Shown here: positions 16,437-46,700 of the stretch, piece after piece
How positions within the stretch are numbered: position 1 is the stretch's first letter
Layout: each line of letters opens with the position of its first letter
Notes under the pieces: model-generated
What the model saw: the letters and a program-made list of their open reading frames with translations, nothing else
Told to the model about the DNA's origin: nothing
Databases searched by the model: none
DNA from: Favolaschia claudopus
Lineage: Eukaryota; Basidiomycota; Agaricomycetes; Agaricales; Mycenaceae
Direction of reading: 5' to 3'
Assembly: GCA_037176885.1 (NCBI GenBank)
Contig: JAWWNJ010000126.1
Coordinates: 1-64,000, forward strand
DNA length: 64,000 bases
Translations under genes and position numbers: made by a program

Positions 16437-18762
16437 ATGTTGTGGTCGCGTCCGAGAGTGTGGACACCGGTAAACCGCCTGTTCCTGCACGCTCAGCGCT
16501 ACCACATCTCTCGAACTAAATCCTCTCAAAATCCCCTTCTCCCCGCTCTCCCCGAGCTCTTTGACCCCAACTTTCTCGACCAGCTCATTCCGCGCCCGTC
16601 GACCGTCAAGGAACATGTCTTGGACACACCCGCACCGTCTAACCCAATGATGGCCGCGCTGTCGCAACTTCCGCATCGTACCCTCACTGAAAATTCCGCT
16701 CCCGCATATGACTCGACTCTTTCGCCGACCCTTGATGCCTTCCAAAGGCTCACGCATTTCTCGTGGGGCGACAGCGTAAAGGATCTTCTTGACGGGGTAA
16801 GCAGGCGAATCCATTCACACTCGCACAATTGACTCAACTGTGCAGGCGTGGGCAGAAGATCCACAATTGACCCTCAAGATCATCTGGAACTTGAGGAGTA
16901 TTCACGATGGTAAATCGGAGAAAGAGGCGTTTTATCGGTGTGTACGTTCGTTCGGCGCTTGACGTGAGCTCAATCGGCGATGCAGGGCATTCGGCTGGCT
17001 GTACGACAATCATCCTCGAACAGCTATCACCAATCTTCATCTGCTCGTTGAGCCCGTTTGCGGCAAAGGCAAATCCGAGCAAGAATTGACTCTTTCTCAT
17101 GGCTATTGGAAAGATCTTCTTAACATTCTCGCCCTCGAAACAGTAGGCGAGCTCAGCAACATATCCAAACGGTCTCGTCTTCTGCACTGCTTTCCGGAAC
17201 GCAAAGGCAAAGACCGACTCGGATCAGAAAATCTAGACAAACACGGCATCAAGGTCGACCTGAAACCCGTCGTAAAAGCAAAGCGAGCGGCCATTGGCGA
17301 AGCGAATCACGCACTGCTCGAGAAGAAGCTGCAGGACCCCAAATTCCGCGCCCTGTACATCGCCGTCGCCCGCCTCTTCGCCGACCGACTCCTCACGGAC
17401 TGGCGTCTCCTGCTGGACTCAGAGACAGCGGAAACCGCCGACGCGCGCAAGGCGCTCCTGCGCAACATCTCCCTCGCGTCCAAATGGGCTCCATCGCTCT
17501 TGGGCATGCACGACCGGCACACGAACATCGCGACCGCCATCAGCCGGCTCGTCTACCACGCCAAGGACGCCTTCCCGACGTTTCGCTTCCCCGCGGCGCT
17601 CGAAAATCACCCCGCGCCGGAGTCCGCTGAGGCGACGGACATTCTGCGGTCGTTTTACAGACGCTGGCTGCTAAGCCCGCTGCGCGCGGCGTCGGAGGTT
17701 ACGGAGACGTTCATGTCGGCGAACCGGTGGAAGGAGATCTCGTATAGCCGCGTCAGCTCGGTGTGCATGAAGAACAACAAGGATCGGTTTTTCGCGCACG
17801 ATCCCGACGGGTTTCAGAAGTACCTCATCTCAGTCGAGAAGGGCCATCGCTCAATTAGCGGCGCCACTCTCTTGCCCCATGAGCTCCTGGGCGAACTTTA
17901 CGGCGCGTCCACCTTCGGCACCAGCAGCGCCAGCGCCAAGTATCCCGAATTGCACAAACATCGAGCGGAGCTGGCGGGTATCAAAATCCGCGTGCTTGAA
18001 GCGCAATGGAAGACGCTGCTGGAGAATTTACGCGCTTCGGGGACGCTGAATAACTCTATCGCTGTCTGCGACGTATCAGGCTCCATGGGTTCTATCGATT
18101 TTTACAACTCCAAATGCGTCGATCCGATATTCCCCGCAGTCTCGCTATCGATTCTCTTCGCGCAGCTGGCCAAGGCGCCGTTCGACCGCGGGTTCATCAC
18201 GTTCTCGGCGAATCCGCAATTCATCCAGCTCGACCCGCGGCTGTCGCTGGTGCAGATGGCGGAGAGGGTGGTGTCGTCCGAGTGGGGGATGAACACCGAT
18301 ATTAGGGCTGTTTTCACGAAGCTTTTGCTGCCGCTGGCGATTCAGAATAAGGTCAAACAGGAGGATATGATTAAGCGGGTGTTTGTGTTTTCGGATATGC
18401 AGTTCGACGGGACGGAGAGGGCGGCTGGTGGATGGGATACGAATTATGATGTGATTGAGAGGAAGTTTAGGATGGCGGGGTATGAGGTGCCGGAGATTGT
18501 GTATTGGAATTTGGGGGCGTTTGAGACCGTGGAGGTGTTGAAGGATAGGAAGGGTGTGGCGTTGATGAGCGGGTTTTCGCCGTCGATGTTGAAGGTGTTC
18601 ATGGGTGAGGACGACGCGGAGGCGAGGGAGGGAGAGGAAGCGGCGGTGGATGGGGAGGTGAAGGTGAATGTGGAGAAGGCGAAGGAGGAGTTTAACCCTT
18701 TGAACGTGATGAAGAAGGCGTTGTTGAGGCCGAGCTTTGATGGATTGGTGGTCGTCGATTGA
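16437..18762 (+). CDS. DUF2828 family protein with C-terminal vWA domain
   Basis: Three exons (16437-16796, 16846-16937, 16986-18762) give a 742-residue protein, normal for DUF2828 (PF11443). Landmarks in order are FQRLTHFSWGDSVKDLL, LKIIWNLRSIHDGKSEKEAF, AFGWLYDNHPRTAITNL, a helical domain with FYRRWLLSPLRAA, and VSSVCMKNNKDRFF. The vWA-like domain has the metal-site motif CDVSGSMGS near residue 512 (DxSxS) and VFVFSDMQFDG further on. DUF2828 resembles the TROVE/Ro60 RNA-binding proteins in domain layout, so RNA or ribonucleoprotein binding is possible but unproven. The N-terminus (MLWSRPRVWTPVNRLFLHAQRYH) is rich in Arg and hydroxyl residues with no acids, like a mitochondrial presequence. 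An acceptor-like TTTTAG just before the ATG leaves open a 5' UTR intron. Confidence 0.92.
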
Positions 18763-25951: not shown

Positions 25952-27153
25952 TTACATGCGCTGCGCCCAGACAAGATAAAAATCGAAAAGGCACTGGAAC
26001 GCTTCACTGTCTAATTCCGCGGCAGACTTTTCTGTGAGTTCTTTCGTGACTCCTTCTTCAGCGAAACGATCACACCAATATTTCGCCAGTTGCTTCAGTG
26101 TGGACCTCAAGGTGACTCCAAGTTGAGCTAATTCCGGTGCGACTGTCAAAAAGCTTCATTTAGAGAACATCATTCAATCGAGAATGAGAATTTGAACCCA
26201 CCTCCCATATTATCGCACACCGGGATGGGCACTTTCTGGGTATGGATTGTTGAAAACATACTTGTGCTTCGAATGGCTGACTCCATCTTCCTACCGAAGC
26301 CAATGTCAGCACCGTATGCTGCTACGATGCCACTCCACAAGGTCAGGAGTTTCGACACTATCGGTCCCCCGGTCTCAATTGCCGAGTAGTTGTCCATGTC
26401 TTCCAGGAAAAGCCAACCCCCACGTTTGACGAGTTGAGCGGCACGTTTCACGGCGTCTACGGCATTTGGAACCTGCATCTGGTATTGAACAAGGACTGAG
26501 GCAGTCGAACAAGGACAGAAACGGACATGGATGAGAAGGAACCGCGCGTGAACCACGTCAAATGACATTGGTTCGAAAGCCAGAGGCTGCGTTACGTCGA
26601 CAAGCTGGAAGCGCATGTTGTTTAGCAGGTTCGTGCTGAAAAATAACAACATTGATATCGGGTTGCGATAAGTTTTTGATGGGACTTACCCTTGAAGAGT
26701 ATGTGATGTATCGGCCACCACCACCTCCGCTTCGGGATATTGAGAGGCAATATCAAAAGCCCTGAGGATATGACAAGTAACTTGTACCCCTAGGCGACTC
26801 GTACGTCTGCTAAGTACCAAGCTCCGCTTCCGCAGCTTGAAATTCAAGTTCAGAGCTTGACCTTGGACGATATATTCAGACAGGTAGGCTCACCCAAGAT
26901 CCAGAATCCTTCGCGGCGAGGGGTCGTATATCTCGGGAGCAAAAGCCACTTGGCTGTTCTGGTAATTTCGAATCGAGAGATGGAGCTCGTCAAGTCTGTT
27001 TCGTTTGTGAACAAATTTAAATGGAGAGATGGGTTGAAGACGCTCACCTGTCTTTCTCAGCCGTGGCCTGGGCAGTCTGGAATAATGGGGGGTTGGAAAG
27101 GATTTTGGTTCGCGCTACCAACTCACCTCGATGGTGTACAGTGACTTGACCAT
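25952..27153 (-). CDS. Class I SAM-dependent methyltransferase
   Basis: A seven-strand Rossmann methyltransferase of about 310-330 residues, in the broad UbiE/LaeA-like group. From the ATG at 27153 (MVKSLYTIE) the spliced protein reads ATAEKDRLDELHLSIRNYQ, then FAPEIYDPSPRRILDLG, then motif I CGSGAW, then AFDIASQYPEAEVVVADTSH with the acidic end of strand 2. Motif I is supplied by a micro-exon of only 18 nt (26835-26818) between introns 26893-26836 and 26817-26762. Later blocks are MRFQLVDVTQPLAFEPMSFD, VVHARFLLIHV (motif III area), RAAQLVKRGGWLFLEDMDNY (motif IV area), LTLWSGIVAAYGADIGFGRK, and a C-terminal helix stopping after WAQRM at 25952. Substrate unknown; there is no biosynthetic cluster to help. 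An extra upstream exon cannot be excluded. Confidence 0.85.
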
Positions 27154-30242: not shown

Positions 30243-31430
30243 TCACGGTGCGCTAAAATACTCGGGCAACACATACGCGAGCGCGGCGTTCTTGACTGAC
30301 AGAGGCGGGGCCATGAGGGCGAATTGCATGCAGCCTTTTTCTTCGGTGAGGAGGGTGGAGGTCTACGGAAGGGGAATAAGCATGAGCAAGGAAATGACGA
30401 CGAGAAGAAACCGAGGACTCACCGAATCCGCAGCTGCAGCACCGAGAAGGCGCTCGATAACGTGCGCGGCGACGTGTCGGGAGGTGTCTGCATTTTGCTT
30501 AAGGATGGCCCCGACTTCCGCTGCGGTGACGCCTGCTTCGTGGGGTCTCCAAGCGTCGTAGTCGGTCGCGGTTGCGATGAGTGCGAAGCTGCGATCGTAA
30601 GCTGATCAGTAATGGCGGACATCAGGCACACATACACACACCTAATCTCCGCCTCCCTGGCAAGCTTCGCCTCCGGCAATGCGGTCATCCCAATGAGATC
30701 CCCACCCCACATCCTATACATCAGACTCTCCGCCCTCGTCGAGAACTGCGGCCCCTCCATCACCACCAACGTCTTTTCCGTCCAAAGCTTCGTCCCTCTC
30801 CCTTCGCTCTGTAACGCCTCCTTCACCGCGCCCTCCAACCACCGCCCCAATCCCTTCGCATACGGATCGCCGAACCCCGCATGGGCGACGACGCCGGTGT
30901 CATCGAAGAAGGACGTGGGGCGCACGCCCTTGGTGCGGTCGATGAGCTGGGAGGGGAGGATGAAGTCACCTGGGGCGATCTCTTCGCGGAGGGAGCCGAC
31001 GGCGGAGAAGGCGAGGATGGTGGAGACGCCGAGCGATTTGAGGGCGGCGATGTTGGCGCGGGCAGGGATGGTGGAGGGGGAGATGGTGTGGCCGACGCCG
31101 TGGCGGGCGACGAAGGCGACGAGGGCGCCGGAGGGGAGGGAGGAGATGGCGATCGGGGAGGAGGGGAACCCCCAGGGCTGGAATTATGGTGTGTGAGGGA
31201 AGATATAACAAGCTAAAGGTTCAGATTTACGCACGGTTTCGGGGTTCACATGTTTTCTACAAGAGCTTCAGCCTTTGTCTAAGCGAAAACGAAGCGATTT
31301 GACTTGCATAAAAGTCAGATTGTCGAGGTTATACAGCCCGCTGCCGCCGATGACGCCCACAAGCACTACAAATGCTCAGTCCCGACAATTTTGGAGCAGT
31401 TCCATTTGACTTACCTTTATCGGTGGCCAT
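30243..31430 (-). CDS. MEU1: S-methyl-5'-thioadenosine phosphorylase
   Basis: Cleaves methylthioadenosine, a by-product of polyamine synthesis, with phosphate to adenine and methylthioribose-1-phosphate; cytosolic, first step of methionine salvage. The ATG at 31430 gives MATDK, then after an intron [19 protein letters not shown] with the phosphate-binding GGSG. A GC-AG intron (31307-31257, donor GCAAGT) leads to a 22-nt exon encoding KHVNPET, and the next exon opens [11 protein letters not shown]. Later family blocks are all present: [100 protein letters not shown] and [14 protein letters not shown]. The final exon (30350-30243) ends EYFSAP. The gene looks complete and functional. It lies between dispersed repeat copy 1 and its inverted fragment, and near a purine-type permease on the same strand. 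Confidence 0.95.
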
Positions 31431-32078: not shown

Positions 32079-33998
32079 TTACCGGCCAATGTATTTGATT
32101 TCTAGCCATCGAAAGACTGGAAATGTAACACCAGCAAACACGGCAGCAAGCTATCTCGGTCAATGAGGAAGGGATAAATCAAAGCATCAAATATGGGACT
32201 CACCTCAAATCCCAGATCCGCGCCGAATTCCTCGCCCGCTTTACGACCAAGCGGACCGATATACCAGACCTGGGCCATCCCAACGACAGCACCTGCGACG
32301 CCAAAGCATCCCGCAAGTAAACCCGCGATTCCAATGGGAAGGCGAGATGGGCTATCCCAATCCTCGAAATTGTAGCCGCCAAGACGTCCCCCAGGTCGGC
32401 GAAAAATGAAATGCTCCTCAGCAGCAATGACGGTGAAGAAAGCCGTCCAATAGCTGAGAATCGAAAGAAAATTGGACAGGATCTCTGAAAAGTGTTCTCG
32501 ACCGGCGACTCCAGCTCCGGTGTACGCCGCAAACACTATGACCGTCCAGAAGAAGCGGGGTATCTTTGCGAATGGGCGCCCGAGGGCTTGGATTGATAGT
32601 GCTGCGGAATATGTATTTGGCACGTTGTTAGCGCTGAAAGATGGAATCAAAACAGGAATAAATTATTGTGAAATGGACTGACATCACGGAAAATGCGAGA
32701 ACGAAGAGGATGAATTTGCCTCCGCCTCGCCACGGCGAAAGAATCTGACCCAACAGTCCACCAGGTCCGCCATTGGCAAAGGCGTCGGTGTAAGACGGGT
32801 CGGTGATAGTCATGAGAGCCGCTCCCACGATTTCAACGAAGACGATTGGGATGAAGAGGCCGAGGAAAGTGAGGATGAAGACGCTGACAGCTGGGGTTTC
32901 CGCAGGCAAACGACAGTTATAATCAGCGGCTACAGGTGCCCAGCCCACGACGGAACCGAAAACGATTCCCCCAAAGCTCAAAATGTCTGATGAAAGCGCC
33001 TTGCCGGAATCTTCCGACTGTTTCTGAGCATTCACGTCGTAACCCGCTTTGCTACCCAATCCCAGGAGGAAGAGCATTACTAGGAAGAGAACCATCCAGG
33101 CGTAACGCTCGCAATGATGCACCATATGATATCCTGTATTCATTTCAGTAGATCAACGAGAAGGAGAACGAGGCTGTTATACCGATGAAGCACGGAATCA
33201 AACTGCATACACCGATAATGACAATTCCGGCGGCTAGAGGAAGTGTTCCAGGATTGATGGATGCGAGGGTCTGTCCGCCGAGAATCACTGCAGTGACGGA
33301 GAAGCCTAACCTTGGGGAATGTTCAACAAAAATCCAGTAAAAGGCAAAGCAAGCCTTACTGCGTCAAAATATTCAGAATCGAGTGAATTGTGCATCCCAG
33401 ATACCCTGAGCTATACCGCGTGATAATCATGGTACGTAGACCGGTTTGCGGGCCCAATGTCGAGATGAACGAAGTGGGTATAGCTCCGAGTGCGGTAAAG
33501 CAGAAAATTGTGGATATCGCATGGCTATGGGTAGAAGTCAGCGGCTTTGGATCGTACGATAATAGTATCGTCACGTACGGCAATGTGAGCGTGAAAATAC
33601 TTTGGGCGAGCATGCCAATTGGAAGGGTGGTTAGGACAGTGTTTACTGACCTAGAGGTAAGCTTGAGGTGAATTGCTTATTGCGAGGCAAGCAACGACGA
33701 GCTTACCACCACATCAACAGGCTATACTCGCCGGAAGTGTAGATATAGCCAGCCGCAATTCATCAAATGAGAGAACACACTTGTTCCACATATTTCTGGT
33801 CTCTCTCTGGTCCTCCGGCACTCTCTCCACACCTCGAGCTTCAACGCCGCCGCGAGCGAAAAGTCGGGACAAGGCCGAACCCACAAAAGCAAACCGCTTC
33901 GGAGGGTCATGGCTCGGAACGCTTGAATCCTCGGGGCCATTCTGGTGTGCAGATTCCAAGTCTTTGGTTTCAGAGGGAGCTGGGGTAGGCGCGGTCAT
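32079..33998 (-). CDS. NCS1-family purine/cytosine permease (Fcy2-like)
   Basis: A plasma-membrane proton symporter for nucleobases, about 520 residues with 12 predicted helices. The ATG at 33998 opens a hydrophilic tail (MTAPTPAPSETKDLESAHQN) and LSRLFARGGVEARGVERVP, the usual NCS1 entry. Family blocks follow: GYHMVHHCERYAWMVLFLV, FGSVVGWAPVAADYNCRLP (signature loop), FANGGPGGLLGQILSPWRGG, then after an intron NNVPNTYSAALSIQALGRPF, FWTVIVFAAYTGAGVAGREH, FLSILSYWTAFFTVIAAEEH and RLPIGIAGLLAGCFGVAGAV. The last exon starts after an intron within 32204-32153 and reads ELAAVFAGVTFPVFRWLEIK, stopping at 32079. It resembles fungal Fcy2/FcyB carriers of adenine, guanine, hypoxanthine and cytosine. 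A TATTTAA lies 65 bases upstream of the start. Confidence 0.93.
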
Positions 33999-43740: not shown

Positions 43741-46700
43741 TCAATCCGCAAGTAACAAGAACACGAGATACGACCAGAACCCATTCGGTCTCTCCACCTG
43801 CTCAGTCTGAGAGGCACCGTCTAAAACCTCTCCTTGACTCCCCACTGCACCTGCATTCCCTCCTTGATACGCCTCCCCCTTCCCATTAAACCCACCCGTA
43901 CTCAGACTCTCCGGTACATCCCCCGCCCCCGTACCCCACTTACTCTCCTTCCCCTTCCCCATCACCAACTCCAACGTCCCGCCATACCTGAAAAAATCAT
44001 GCGATATCCAATTCTTCGTGTACGGTTTCCCGTTGAGGGTCGCCGATTGAATGTACCTGTAGTCGCGGACACATTGATTGAATCTAAGATGAGTTGAGGA
44101 GAAGAGACTCACCGATTCTCCCCGCCGAAATTGACCGCCCGAATGATAGCGGTAGCGCCATTGATCTCGTTACGCAGGGTAATTTTGGGAAAATAAGGTC
44201 GGTTGAGGAGGTAGATAGATTGACCGGCGACGGGGAAAAAGCCTACGTGGCGGCGTTCATGCACTTGAATCTTCATCGAAATAAAGACAGCTATAACTAA
44301 CCAAGATGGCTCCAGACCACGTATGCGCCCATTGAACCCGAGTCGTCGTTCCCCGGGAGCCCAATCACGCTAAGGAATGGGGTGATCAAGATCGCTGCTT
44401 CATTTACAAGGGTGAAGACTGACGATGTGTTGTAATACGCCGCCACAGTTTCGTCGACCCGATCGACAGTCTTGACGGGCTCGCCGACGTAGTTGTAGAG
44501 ATATGTCGGGACTGAAAGACGTCAGATGTCATTCGAGAAAATGAATCCAAGGTATATGAAAAAGACGCACGAAATCCCGGTTCATCTCCCATATCCTGTA
44601 AGAAGAATCAAGCGATTCATTAGTCACAAGGCCGATCTACAAGTAGAAAAACGCACATGGAACCCAGCCTCGAAGAAATGATCCAATCGCTTGCTAGAAA
44701 CACCATCCTCATCAGTGCTCACACCACAACAAAACGAAAGCCCCAAACCCACCTAAACATCTCCTTCCCACCCATAACCCCCACCAACCTCGCCATATCA
44801 TGCGGCACATAAAAACTATACTCCCACGACGAAGCCTCATAGAACTCGCCCCCACCCCATCCACCAAAACAATCCAGATGCCCAAAGACAGGACTGCAAT
44901 GGTCCGGCCTAAACACCCCATTATGGTCGTACCGCTGATCAAAAAACCACGACCCATCCGCGCTCTTGGGCTGAATGAATCCAGAGAAGCCGCTATGCGT
45001 GGCGTTGGGGTTCCATATATTCAGCCAGTCATGAGATTTGTTGAAGTAGTGCTGCACGACCGAGTCGGATTTGTTGAGACCTTGAGCGACGAGGGCGATG
45101 GAGAAGTCGTTGTAGGCGTATTCGAGAAGACGCGAGGCGGATCTAAGCGCAGATAAATAAATATACGAGTAACACGCGAGAAACAAACGCACCTCGTATT
45201 CGCCCCACCACTCGGCGGGTGATCCGTATCCCCCGCAGGCACATACCCCAACCTCTCCCTCGAATTAACCCCTCCCCTCCCCTCCACCTCGAAATCCCCC
45301 ATCTGCGTCGCATCCTTCACCATCCCCTCAAACGCCTTCTCCCAATCCACCCCCTCCCCCGCCCGCATCCCAATCCCCTTAACGAACGAATCCGCCAACA
45401 GCGAATCCGCATTACTCCCGCCCTGCGTGAAGCCCTTGTCCATCGACATCCGGCAGTCGGGGAGGAAGCCCGTGTGTTCGTAGATGTTGATGAGGGCGCG
45501 GACGATCTCGGCCTGCGCAGAGGGCGCGGTGATGGCGTAGAGCGGGTGCACGACGCGGAAGGTGTCCCAGATGCAGTAGAAGCTGTCCCAGTACGGTTCC
45601 GCCGAGGCCCAGAGCGGGTTGTCGCCTGTGACGTTCGTGGGGGCGATGTACGTGCGGTAGAGAGACGTCCAGAAGAGCTGCTGGGTGTCGGTGGAGACAC
45701 CCGTGGCGTCGAGCTGGATTGCGCCGAGAAGGTGATTCCATTTCGCTCTGAGTGGCCGATTGTGAGAGTCATAGATTTGAGTAACAGAGGCACGCACCTG
45801 GCATCACTCCGTACCCCCTCGAATCCTTCTGACGACACCCGCGCACTCGGAATCTCCTCCTCTGCAAACGCACACGCCCGCTCAGCGCTCACCCACGACA
45901 CCCCCATCCTCAGCACCAACTCCGCCTCCTGCCCCTTCACGCCCTTCTTCGGCGCGAACCCCAATAGCACGCCCGCAGGCGCGTGCCGCTCAATCTTCCT
46001 GTCGAAACTCGCAGTGTTATTGAGGTCGGTGTACTCCAGCGCACGGTTGGACGTTTGATAGTATTTGGCTTGAGCGAAGGGACGCGGGGAGTCGAGGCAG
46101 AAGAAGACTTGATAGGTCGTTTGCCCGAAGGAGGGGATCCAGCGGCCGGTGCCTGTTATGCGGCTGCCAGAGATGGAGGGGGAGGGGGAGACGGTGACGT
46201 GGCCGTCGCCCTGATATCGTACGGCGAGGTCTACTCGGATTAGATCTATGTACAGTGAAAGTAAGTAGTGCGACGCACCGTTTGTTACGTCTAGCAGCAC
46301 AAGCAGCTGGTCTGTGCCTTTGGGATAGGTAAAGCGATGCAGGGCAGCGTGCTCGGTTACGGTAACTTCAGCGTGAACGCCATTGTCGAAAGGAATGCCA
46401 ACTGCGAATTGTGAGACGGCTAGGATAGTAAGAAGGAAATCGTGCTCACAATATCCCGGTGATGCGCTGGGCTCGCCGTGTCCCAAGGCTCTACTCTCGC
46501 GATCCACCGTACATTTCGTCAAATCGTTATCCTGACAATTTGCTTTCGTGAACGGAAGCAAGGCGAATTGGCCCAGCGATGAAGAGCCTCCGGTTCCGTC
46601 ATCATGTCTATCGTCCTCAGTCAAAAGCAACGGGATAGGAAGGCAGTCTCCTCACAGCTGCGAGATCCCCGTCACCGTCGACCCATCGCTAACATATCCC

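What the first reader, a model, noticed from the sequence alone, without database searches (positions are those of the whole stretch)
26762..26893. An 18-nt micro-exon carries the SAM-binding motif of the methyltransferase
Seen directly: between a 58-nt and a 56-nt intron, 18 bases (26835-26818, minus) encode CGSGAW, turning ILDLG...AFDIASQYPE into the canonical ILDLGCGSGAWAFD. Without it the enzyme lacks motif I, and gene predictors would likely miss it. Skipping the exon keeps the frame (18 = 6 codons), so alternative splicing could switch the enzyme between active and cofactor-dead forms; that last point is inference.
Basis: partly seen in the sequence, partly recalled or inferred. Interest (0 to 1): 0.75.

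Follow-up and report, generated by a model that had tools for sequence, protein, structure and literature searches.

The report
Tiny exon encodes enzyme's cofactor loop
In a wood-rotting mushroom, an 18-letter exon squeezed between two short introns supplies the cofactor-binding loop of a methyltransferase; the same tiny exon recurs in most of the gene's relatives examined in this genome, so it looks real and old, but nothing found here shows that the cell uses it as a switch.

Summary
It completes ILDLG-CGSGAW-AFD, motif I of a class I SAM-dependent methyltransferase. The genome is almost certainly Favolaschia claudopus (Mycenaceae). Spliced alignment finds an 18-nt exon at the same place and phase in 25 of 29 family copies examined; three carry the residues in a fused 90-nt exon and one is frameshifted. 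Published proteins for five copies or copy sets contain the motif; two contain my models over 272 residues. All 91 relatives examined carry motif I, among them STR2 of the strobilurin pathway. The switch idea is not supported: skipping stays in frame in 25 of 25 copies, but flanking introns of distant copies match no better than shuffles in 14 comparisons, a skip needs a 119-155-nt intron where 168 of 171 modelled introns are shorter than 119, and no skipped form was among the 91. No RNA reads could be mapped. Best reading: an old, constitutive micro-exon, a new member of a known kind.

The parts
27127..27153 (-). exon 1 (27 nt), start codon at 27153
   Evidence: same exon length in L039, the locus of published protein P0001
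27048..27076 (-). exon 2 (29 nt)
26894..26995 (-). exon 3 (102 nt), ends ...ILDL + GG of the split Gly codon
26836..26893 (-). intron 3 (58 nt, GTGAGC...TTCAAG, phase 2); retention gives a stop at once
26818..26835 (-). exon 4, the 18-nt micro-exon: last base of Gly, CGSGA, first two bases of Trp
26762..26817 (-). intron 4 (56 nt, GTACTT...CCTCAG, phase 2); donor among the weaker ones (rank 14 of 167); retention gives a stop
26690..26761 (-). exon 5 (72 nt), begins with the last base of Trp, then AFDIASQYPE
26527..26635 (-). exon 6 (109 nt)
26202..26472 (-). exon 7 (271 nt); acceptor moved 6 nt from my first model so that HVPN matches relatives
25952..26142 (-). exon 8 (191 nt with the stop codon)

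Best explanation
The 18-nt exon is a constitutive micro-exon, ancestral to this STR2/STR3-type family of fungal SAM-dependent methyltransferases. Two short introns, each recognised on its own (intron definition), cut the coding sequence on either side of the glycine-rich loop between strand beta-1 and helix A. Both are removed in the normal mRNA, and the exon supplies GCGSGAW, the loop that binds SAM. Shown: the exon, its phases, its recurrence and silent divergence in the genome, and motif I in the 91 relatives examined. Inferred: that splicing is constitutive, that intron definition is the way, that the exon is ancestral, and that the loop binds SAM in this very enzyme. The exon stays 18 nt because the protein loop cannot change, and it is in frame because both introns have the same phase, which needs no selection for skipping.
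For: 18-nt exon with the same phases in 25 of 29 copies, motif kept while codons change. P0001 and P0002, published F. claudopus proteins, contain my models of L039 and L048 over 272 residues, motif included; the genome project sequenced mRNA for annotation (PMC10905254). 91 of 91 relatives examined carry the motif, including STR2 of Strobilurus tenacellus (P0053), whose cluster's coding sequences were refined with transcriptome data and whose str2 and str3 were among the genes expressed in Aspergillus oryzae to reach strobilurin A (PMC6158276, passages). 14 of 14 of these on contigs under 1,300 bases, which encode the protein without interruption and so look like transcripts (inference), carry it; whether those genes have the micro-exon is unknown. 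The predicted structure of the close paralogue P0001 puts residues 53-57 between strand 48-52 and helix 58-66. Foldseek's best matches are methyltransferases, several solved with SAH or SAM. Modelled introns have a median of 54 nt.
Against: No RNA read was mapped here for any copy. The window copy's intron-4 donor (TTG|GTACTT) is weak (1.38 bits, rank 14 of 167), and intron-4 donors as a group average 4.41 bits, below introns 1, 2, 3 and 5, so splicing there might be leaky. No published protein equal to the window's gene was listed, so expression of this copy is unproven. In-frame skipping in 25 of 25 copies is what a switch would also show. With the motif masked, 9 of 25 copies did not return the exon. 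Exon structure in other species could not be examined.
Confidence: 0.88

Rival explanations
1. Regulated switch: the exon is skipped under some conditions, giving a stable protein without motif I that is inactive or dominant-negative.
For: Both introns are phase 2, so skipping keeps the frame and leaves a Gly codon in 25 of 25 copies. A glucose-controlled microexon switch is described for Xlr2 in Trichoderma virens (PMC11121469, abstract start, passages and introduction). The intron-4 donor of the window copy is weak.
Against: Flanking introns of distant copies are no more alike than shuffled ones: for seven distant representatives against the window copy, 12 to 198 of 200 shuffles scored as high, in 14 comparisons; the one close copy tested, L039, does share its introns (0.86 and 0.85 identity), as a recent duplicate would. 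A skip would need a 119-155-nt intron, where 168 of 171 modelled introns are under 119 nt; the three longer ones lie in weakly aligned parts of the distant copies L058, L070 and L071. Fungi are thought to use intron definition, where a missed site gives retention; in Ustilago maydis 114 of 193 alternative events were retention and 12 exon skipping (PMC2219887, passages). No protein without the motif among 91, though clustering at 90% identity would hide isoforms. Two adjacent introns share a phase about one time in three by chance (inference).
Confidence: 0.06
2. The window copy is a poorly spliced or decaying duplicate, with motif I present in the DNA but often lost to intron retention.
For: Weak intron-4 donor; no published protein equal to it was listed; it has KRGG where most relatives have KPGG; one family copy, L051, is frameshifted; copies are many.
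Against: The window copy reads through eight exons without a stop over 272 residues, and its 4 differences from the nearest copies in exon 4 are all silent. The sister copy L041 has the same GTACTT donor, and the L042 group has KKGG at the same place.
Confidence: 0.05
3. Wrong gene model: another exon, or a frame carried through one intron, supplies motif I.
For: No RNA was mapped.
Against: Spliced alignment with the motif masked still picks the same exon in the window copy; independent published proteins agree for sister copies; retained introns give stops.
Confidence: 0.01

Closest known systems
Strobilurin O-methyltransferases STR2 and STR3 (Strobilurus tenacellus; homologues in Mycena and F. 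claudopus)
   Same: Near full-length alignment (P0053 31% identity over 92% of the query) and the same kind of motif I; F. claudopus proteins named str3 (P0047) and str2 (P0065) correspond to loci L055/57/60 and L071, which have the same 18-nt exon.
   Different: The window gene lies outside the clade that holds STR2 and the str3-named proteins. The copies nearest STR2 (L056, L058, L059) lack intron 4. Substrate unknown.
Micro-exons of the P450 genes of Phanerochaete chrysosporium (PMC1184071, passages)
   Same: Basidiomycete genes with exons encoding 2-10 residues and frequent introns of 45-55 bp.
   Different: Described as spread over P450 families, not as one fixed exon kept across a family for a cofactor loop.
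One-nucleotide exon of CYP621A in Fusarium (PMC12940212, abstract and introduction)
   Same: A tiny exon inside a conserved motif, needed to rebuild a full-length enzyme; accurate splicing seen in reads under several growth conditions.
   Different: 1 nt, so leaving it out shifts the frame; ascomycete P450.
Xlr2 microexon switch, Trichoderma virens (PMC11121469, abstract start, passages and introduction)
   Same: A fungal micro-exon whose inclusion decides whether a functional domain is made.
   Different: Two isoforms, glucose-dependent; no isoform evidence here.

Membership tests
Class I SAM-dependent methyltransferase | Pfam methyltransferase domain above the curated cut-off | tested here: met
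   Methyltransf_25, 53.4 bits against a cut-off of 27 (274-residue first model)
Class I SAM-dependent methyltransferase | Glycine-rich motif I between strand beta-1 and helix A | tested here: met
   GCGSG between strand 48-52 and helix 58-66 in the model of the close paralogue P0001; the window protein itself was not modelled
Class I SAM-dependent methyltransferase | Methyl transfer from SAM | not testable with these tools
   needs an assay
STR2/STR3 strobilurin methyltransferases | Place inside the STR2/STR3 clade | tested here: not met
   the window gene branches outside the 17-row clade holding P0053, P0047 and P0065 (support 100/99)
STR2/STR3 strobilurin methyltransferases | Methylation in strobilurin synthesis | not testable with these tools
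   needs expression; strobilurin cluster genes were not specifically sought in the window
Micro-exon (usually up to 36 bp, wording of PMC11121469) | Short coding exon between two spliceosomal introns | tested here: met
   18 nt, GT-AG on both sides; splicing itself not observed
Micro-exon (usually up to 36 bp, wording of PMC11121469) | Kept in relatives | tested here: met
   25 of 29 copies in the same genome; other species could not be examined at DNA level
Regulated micro-exon switch | Two isoforms that vary with condition or tissue | not testable with these tools
   no RNA reads held
Regulated micro-exon switch | Conserved flanking intron sequence (usual in animal switches; recalled) | tested here: not met
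   seven distant copies no better than shuffles in 14 comparisons

The most novel reading that the evidence does not exclude
A family-wide, in-frame 18-nt exon that carries the whole cofactor loop is used as an on-off splice switch in mushroom methyltransferases, so that one gene makes an active enzyme and a stable cofactor-dead form.
Probability: 0.06. Interest if true: 0.75.

Novelty: new member of a known kind. Interest (0 to 1): 0.36.

Why it matters
It is a clean case of a catalytic motif carried by a micro-exon that a gene family has kept. Its age can perhaps be bounded: copies with the exon fall on both sides of a split that also holds polypore proteins, so it may predate the Agaricales-Polyporales split (inference from one tree). 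It is a useful test for gene-finding in mushrooms: a pipeline that drops 18 nt would return an in-frame, plausible and probably dead enzyme. The absence of intron 4 in the STR2-like copies is a natural fusion of the micro-exon with its neighbour.

Tried and rejected
Considered and rejected: a chance motif; a different donor after the exon (only GTACTT keeps the phase; read by eye); exon 7 beginning with ATGCAG (my first model), dropped because relatives have HVPN-type residues there and lack the two extra ones. The surroundings were looked at only by nine open frames against Pfam; no cluster was evident from those nine. A search for a skipped isoform in the protein database was not run, because entries are clustered at 90% identity and an isoform about 98% identical would be hidden. 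Literature: 'microexon' with 'fungi' (61 papers, 25 listed), 'micro-exon' with 'basidiomycete' (2 papers), 'microexon' with 'methyltransferase' and 'basidiomycete' (2 papers), 'very small exons' with 'Agaricomycetes' (none). No title or abstract start listed there reports this exon; the library holds open-licence papers only, and the STR2/STR3 paper (found) was read in passages only.

Rows dropped before counts: 36 loci were aligned. Seven were left out of the 29: L064, L067, L068, L069 and L073 scored under 200, and L065 and L066 (score 210) were removed by hand because they look like other methyltransferase families with motif I in one exon (GCADGT, GCGPGT). L069's weak model put an intron inside its own motif I; not checked. 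Of the 107 matches I fetched 35 regions, and the locus of P0087 was not fetched, so the family census is incomplete. Copies come in near-identical sets, probably haplotypes, so 25 copies are fewer independent events: 14 distinct exon sequences. The intron statistics (167 introns, 44-105 nt) rest on the 130-nt cap; one search repeats them with 200 (171 introns, 44-184 nt). GC donors were allowed only. In one search intron 3 of the three fused copies was counted as intron 4; one search corrects this.

Full report
What was claimed and what is there. The minus strand reads ...ATT CTG GAT CTT GG, a 58-nt GT-AG intron, C TGC GGA AGC GGA GCT TG, a 56-nt GT-AG intron, then G GCT TTT GAT. Skipping exon 4 deletes CGSGAW and keeps the frame; keeping intron 3 or intron 4 brings a stop. 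The first full model scores 53.4 bits with Methyltransf_25; without the six residues it scores 29.1 and the match starts at profile position 14.

Where it comes from. The window lies on contig C126 of a 264.6-Mb assembly. Protein P0001 of Favolaschia claudopus sits on a contig of 1,278,044 bases, the length of contig C76 here, and P0002 and P0047 on contigs with the lengths of C16 and C4. The published genome of that species has 265 Mbp, was annotated by JGI with mRNA sequenced from three media, and has 86.8% of its BUSCO genes duplicated (PMC10905254, part 1 of 2 of the text). So the species is very likely F. claudopus, Mycenaceae, and near-identical copies are probably haplotypes.

The exon in the family. 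The window protein has many relatives in its own genome (107 matches at E up to 10). I fetched 35 regions and aligned them and the window copy to the protein with a spliced-alignment script; 29 belong to the family by my cut. With GC donors allowed, and introns up to 200 nt allowed, 25 of 29 contain an 18-nt exon at the motif (the same with a 130-nt cap). L056, L058 and L059 have one exon of 90 nt there, that is 18 plus 72, so intron 4 is absent. L051 is frameshifted and gave no 18-nt exon in the alignment, but such an 18-letter stretch, identical to that of L050, is visible in it. In four copies intron 3 has a GC donor (L049, L061-L063). The 25 exons have 14 distinct sequences: all six third codon positions vary, three of six first and three of six second. 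The window's exon and that of L039-L041 differ at 4 of 18 bases, all silent.

Controls. Shuffling the 132-nt segment 2000 times never reached the real score. With the motif masked in the query, 16 of the 25 copies still gave the same exon; nine did not. The full query scores 14 to 31 points more than a query of the skipped form in the 25 copies.

Agreement with independent annotation and relatives. P0001 and P0002 contain my models of L039 and L048 in full. P0030, P0047 and P0065 match L045, L055/57/60 and L071 at 97-99% identity and carry the motif. A profile search had 343 hits, of which the best 120 were listed; I examined P0001-P0021 and P0030-P0099, 91 proteins, and all 91 carry a motif of the form GxGxGxW. 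Not counted were P0022-P0029 and P0100-P0132, bacterial or more distant, P0100-P0103 among them distant fungal proteins that were fetched. Fourteen of the 91 are on contigs under 1,300 bases (P0003, P0005, P0018, P0040, P0052, P0057, P0061, P0072, P0077, P0079, P0083, P0086, P0091, P0092), which look like transcripts. On the other side, no F. claudopus protein equal to the window gene, or to the L042, L052 and L063 models that were in the query, was among the listed hits; those copies may be unannotated, mis-modelled or missing from the database.

What the enzyme is. The nearest relatives with a functional name are the strobilurin methyltransferases STR2 and STR3. In the published work coding sequences were refined with transcriptome data, and str2 and str3 were co-expressed with other cluster genes in A. 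oryzae in the experiment that gave strobilurin A (PMC6158276, passages). The tree puts the window gene outside the STR2/STR3 clade, in a group of 26 rows whose own support is modest (86/71). The fused-exon copies are nested beside STR2 inside a clade whose other F. claudopus members have the micro-exon, so one loss of intron 4 is the simplest history; the root is by midpoint and some long branches are unsure. L061-L063 join P0031 and P0051, from Taiwanofungus and Fomes (98/96), polypores by recall, which suggests that the exon predates the Agaricales-Polyporales split; their branch is long (1.12). The model of P0001 has mean pLDDT 90.1 and places the residues of exon 4 between the first strand and the first core helix; its nearest solved structures are methyltransferases.

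How it most likely works. Fungi are thought to recognise introns across the intron (PMC2219887, passages). The modelled introns of the family have a median of 54 nt; 168 of 171 are under 119 nt, and the three longer ones lie in weakly aligned parts of distant copies. Each of the two introns can therefore be removed alone, and the exon's small size is no obstacle. A missed site would leave an intron in, and a stop or a shifted frame follows in 24 of 25 copies for intron 3 and 25 of 25 for intron 4. This is inference from anatomy; no reads were mapped.

The switch idea. For it: the frame is kept in 25 of 25 copies, and the intron-4 donor of the window copy is weak (rank 14 of 167; intron-4 donors average 4.41 bits, below introns 1, 2, 3 and 5, level with intron 7 and above intron 6). 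Against it: seven distant copies share no flanking intron sequence with the window copy beyond shuffles, the skipped intron would be 119-155 nt, and no skipped form was among the 91 proteins, a weak test. I give it 0.06.

Verdict. The thing is a conserved, probably constitutive micro-exon, of a kind described in other fungal enzymes, in a family where the literature searches showed no report of it.

Noticed in passing
L049 (G000:C16) and L061-L063 (G000:C26, C108, C5): Intron 3 beside the micro-exon has a GC donor in four copies instead of GT, with the exon and motif intact.
   Followed up: partly
L056, L058, L059: Intron 4 is absent and the 18-nt and 72-nt exons are fused into one of 90 nt, in the copies nearest STR2.
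   Followed up: yes
L051 (G000:C11:98600-100700): A frameshifted copy of the family, close to L050.
   Followed up: partly
window 16963-18762, plus strand: Open frame of 599 residues with DUF2828 and DUF7788.
   Followed up: no
window 30419-31183, minus strand: Phosphorylase superfamily (PNP_UDP_1) gene, perhaps a methylthioadenosine phosphorylase (recalled).
   Followed up: no
window 45021-45803, minus strand: Glycosyl hydrolase family 92 exon.
   Followed up: no
window 32102-33152, minus strand: Cytosine/purine permease fragments, one above and one just below the Pfam cut-off.
   Followed up: no
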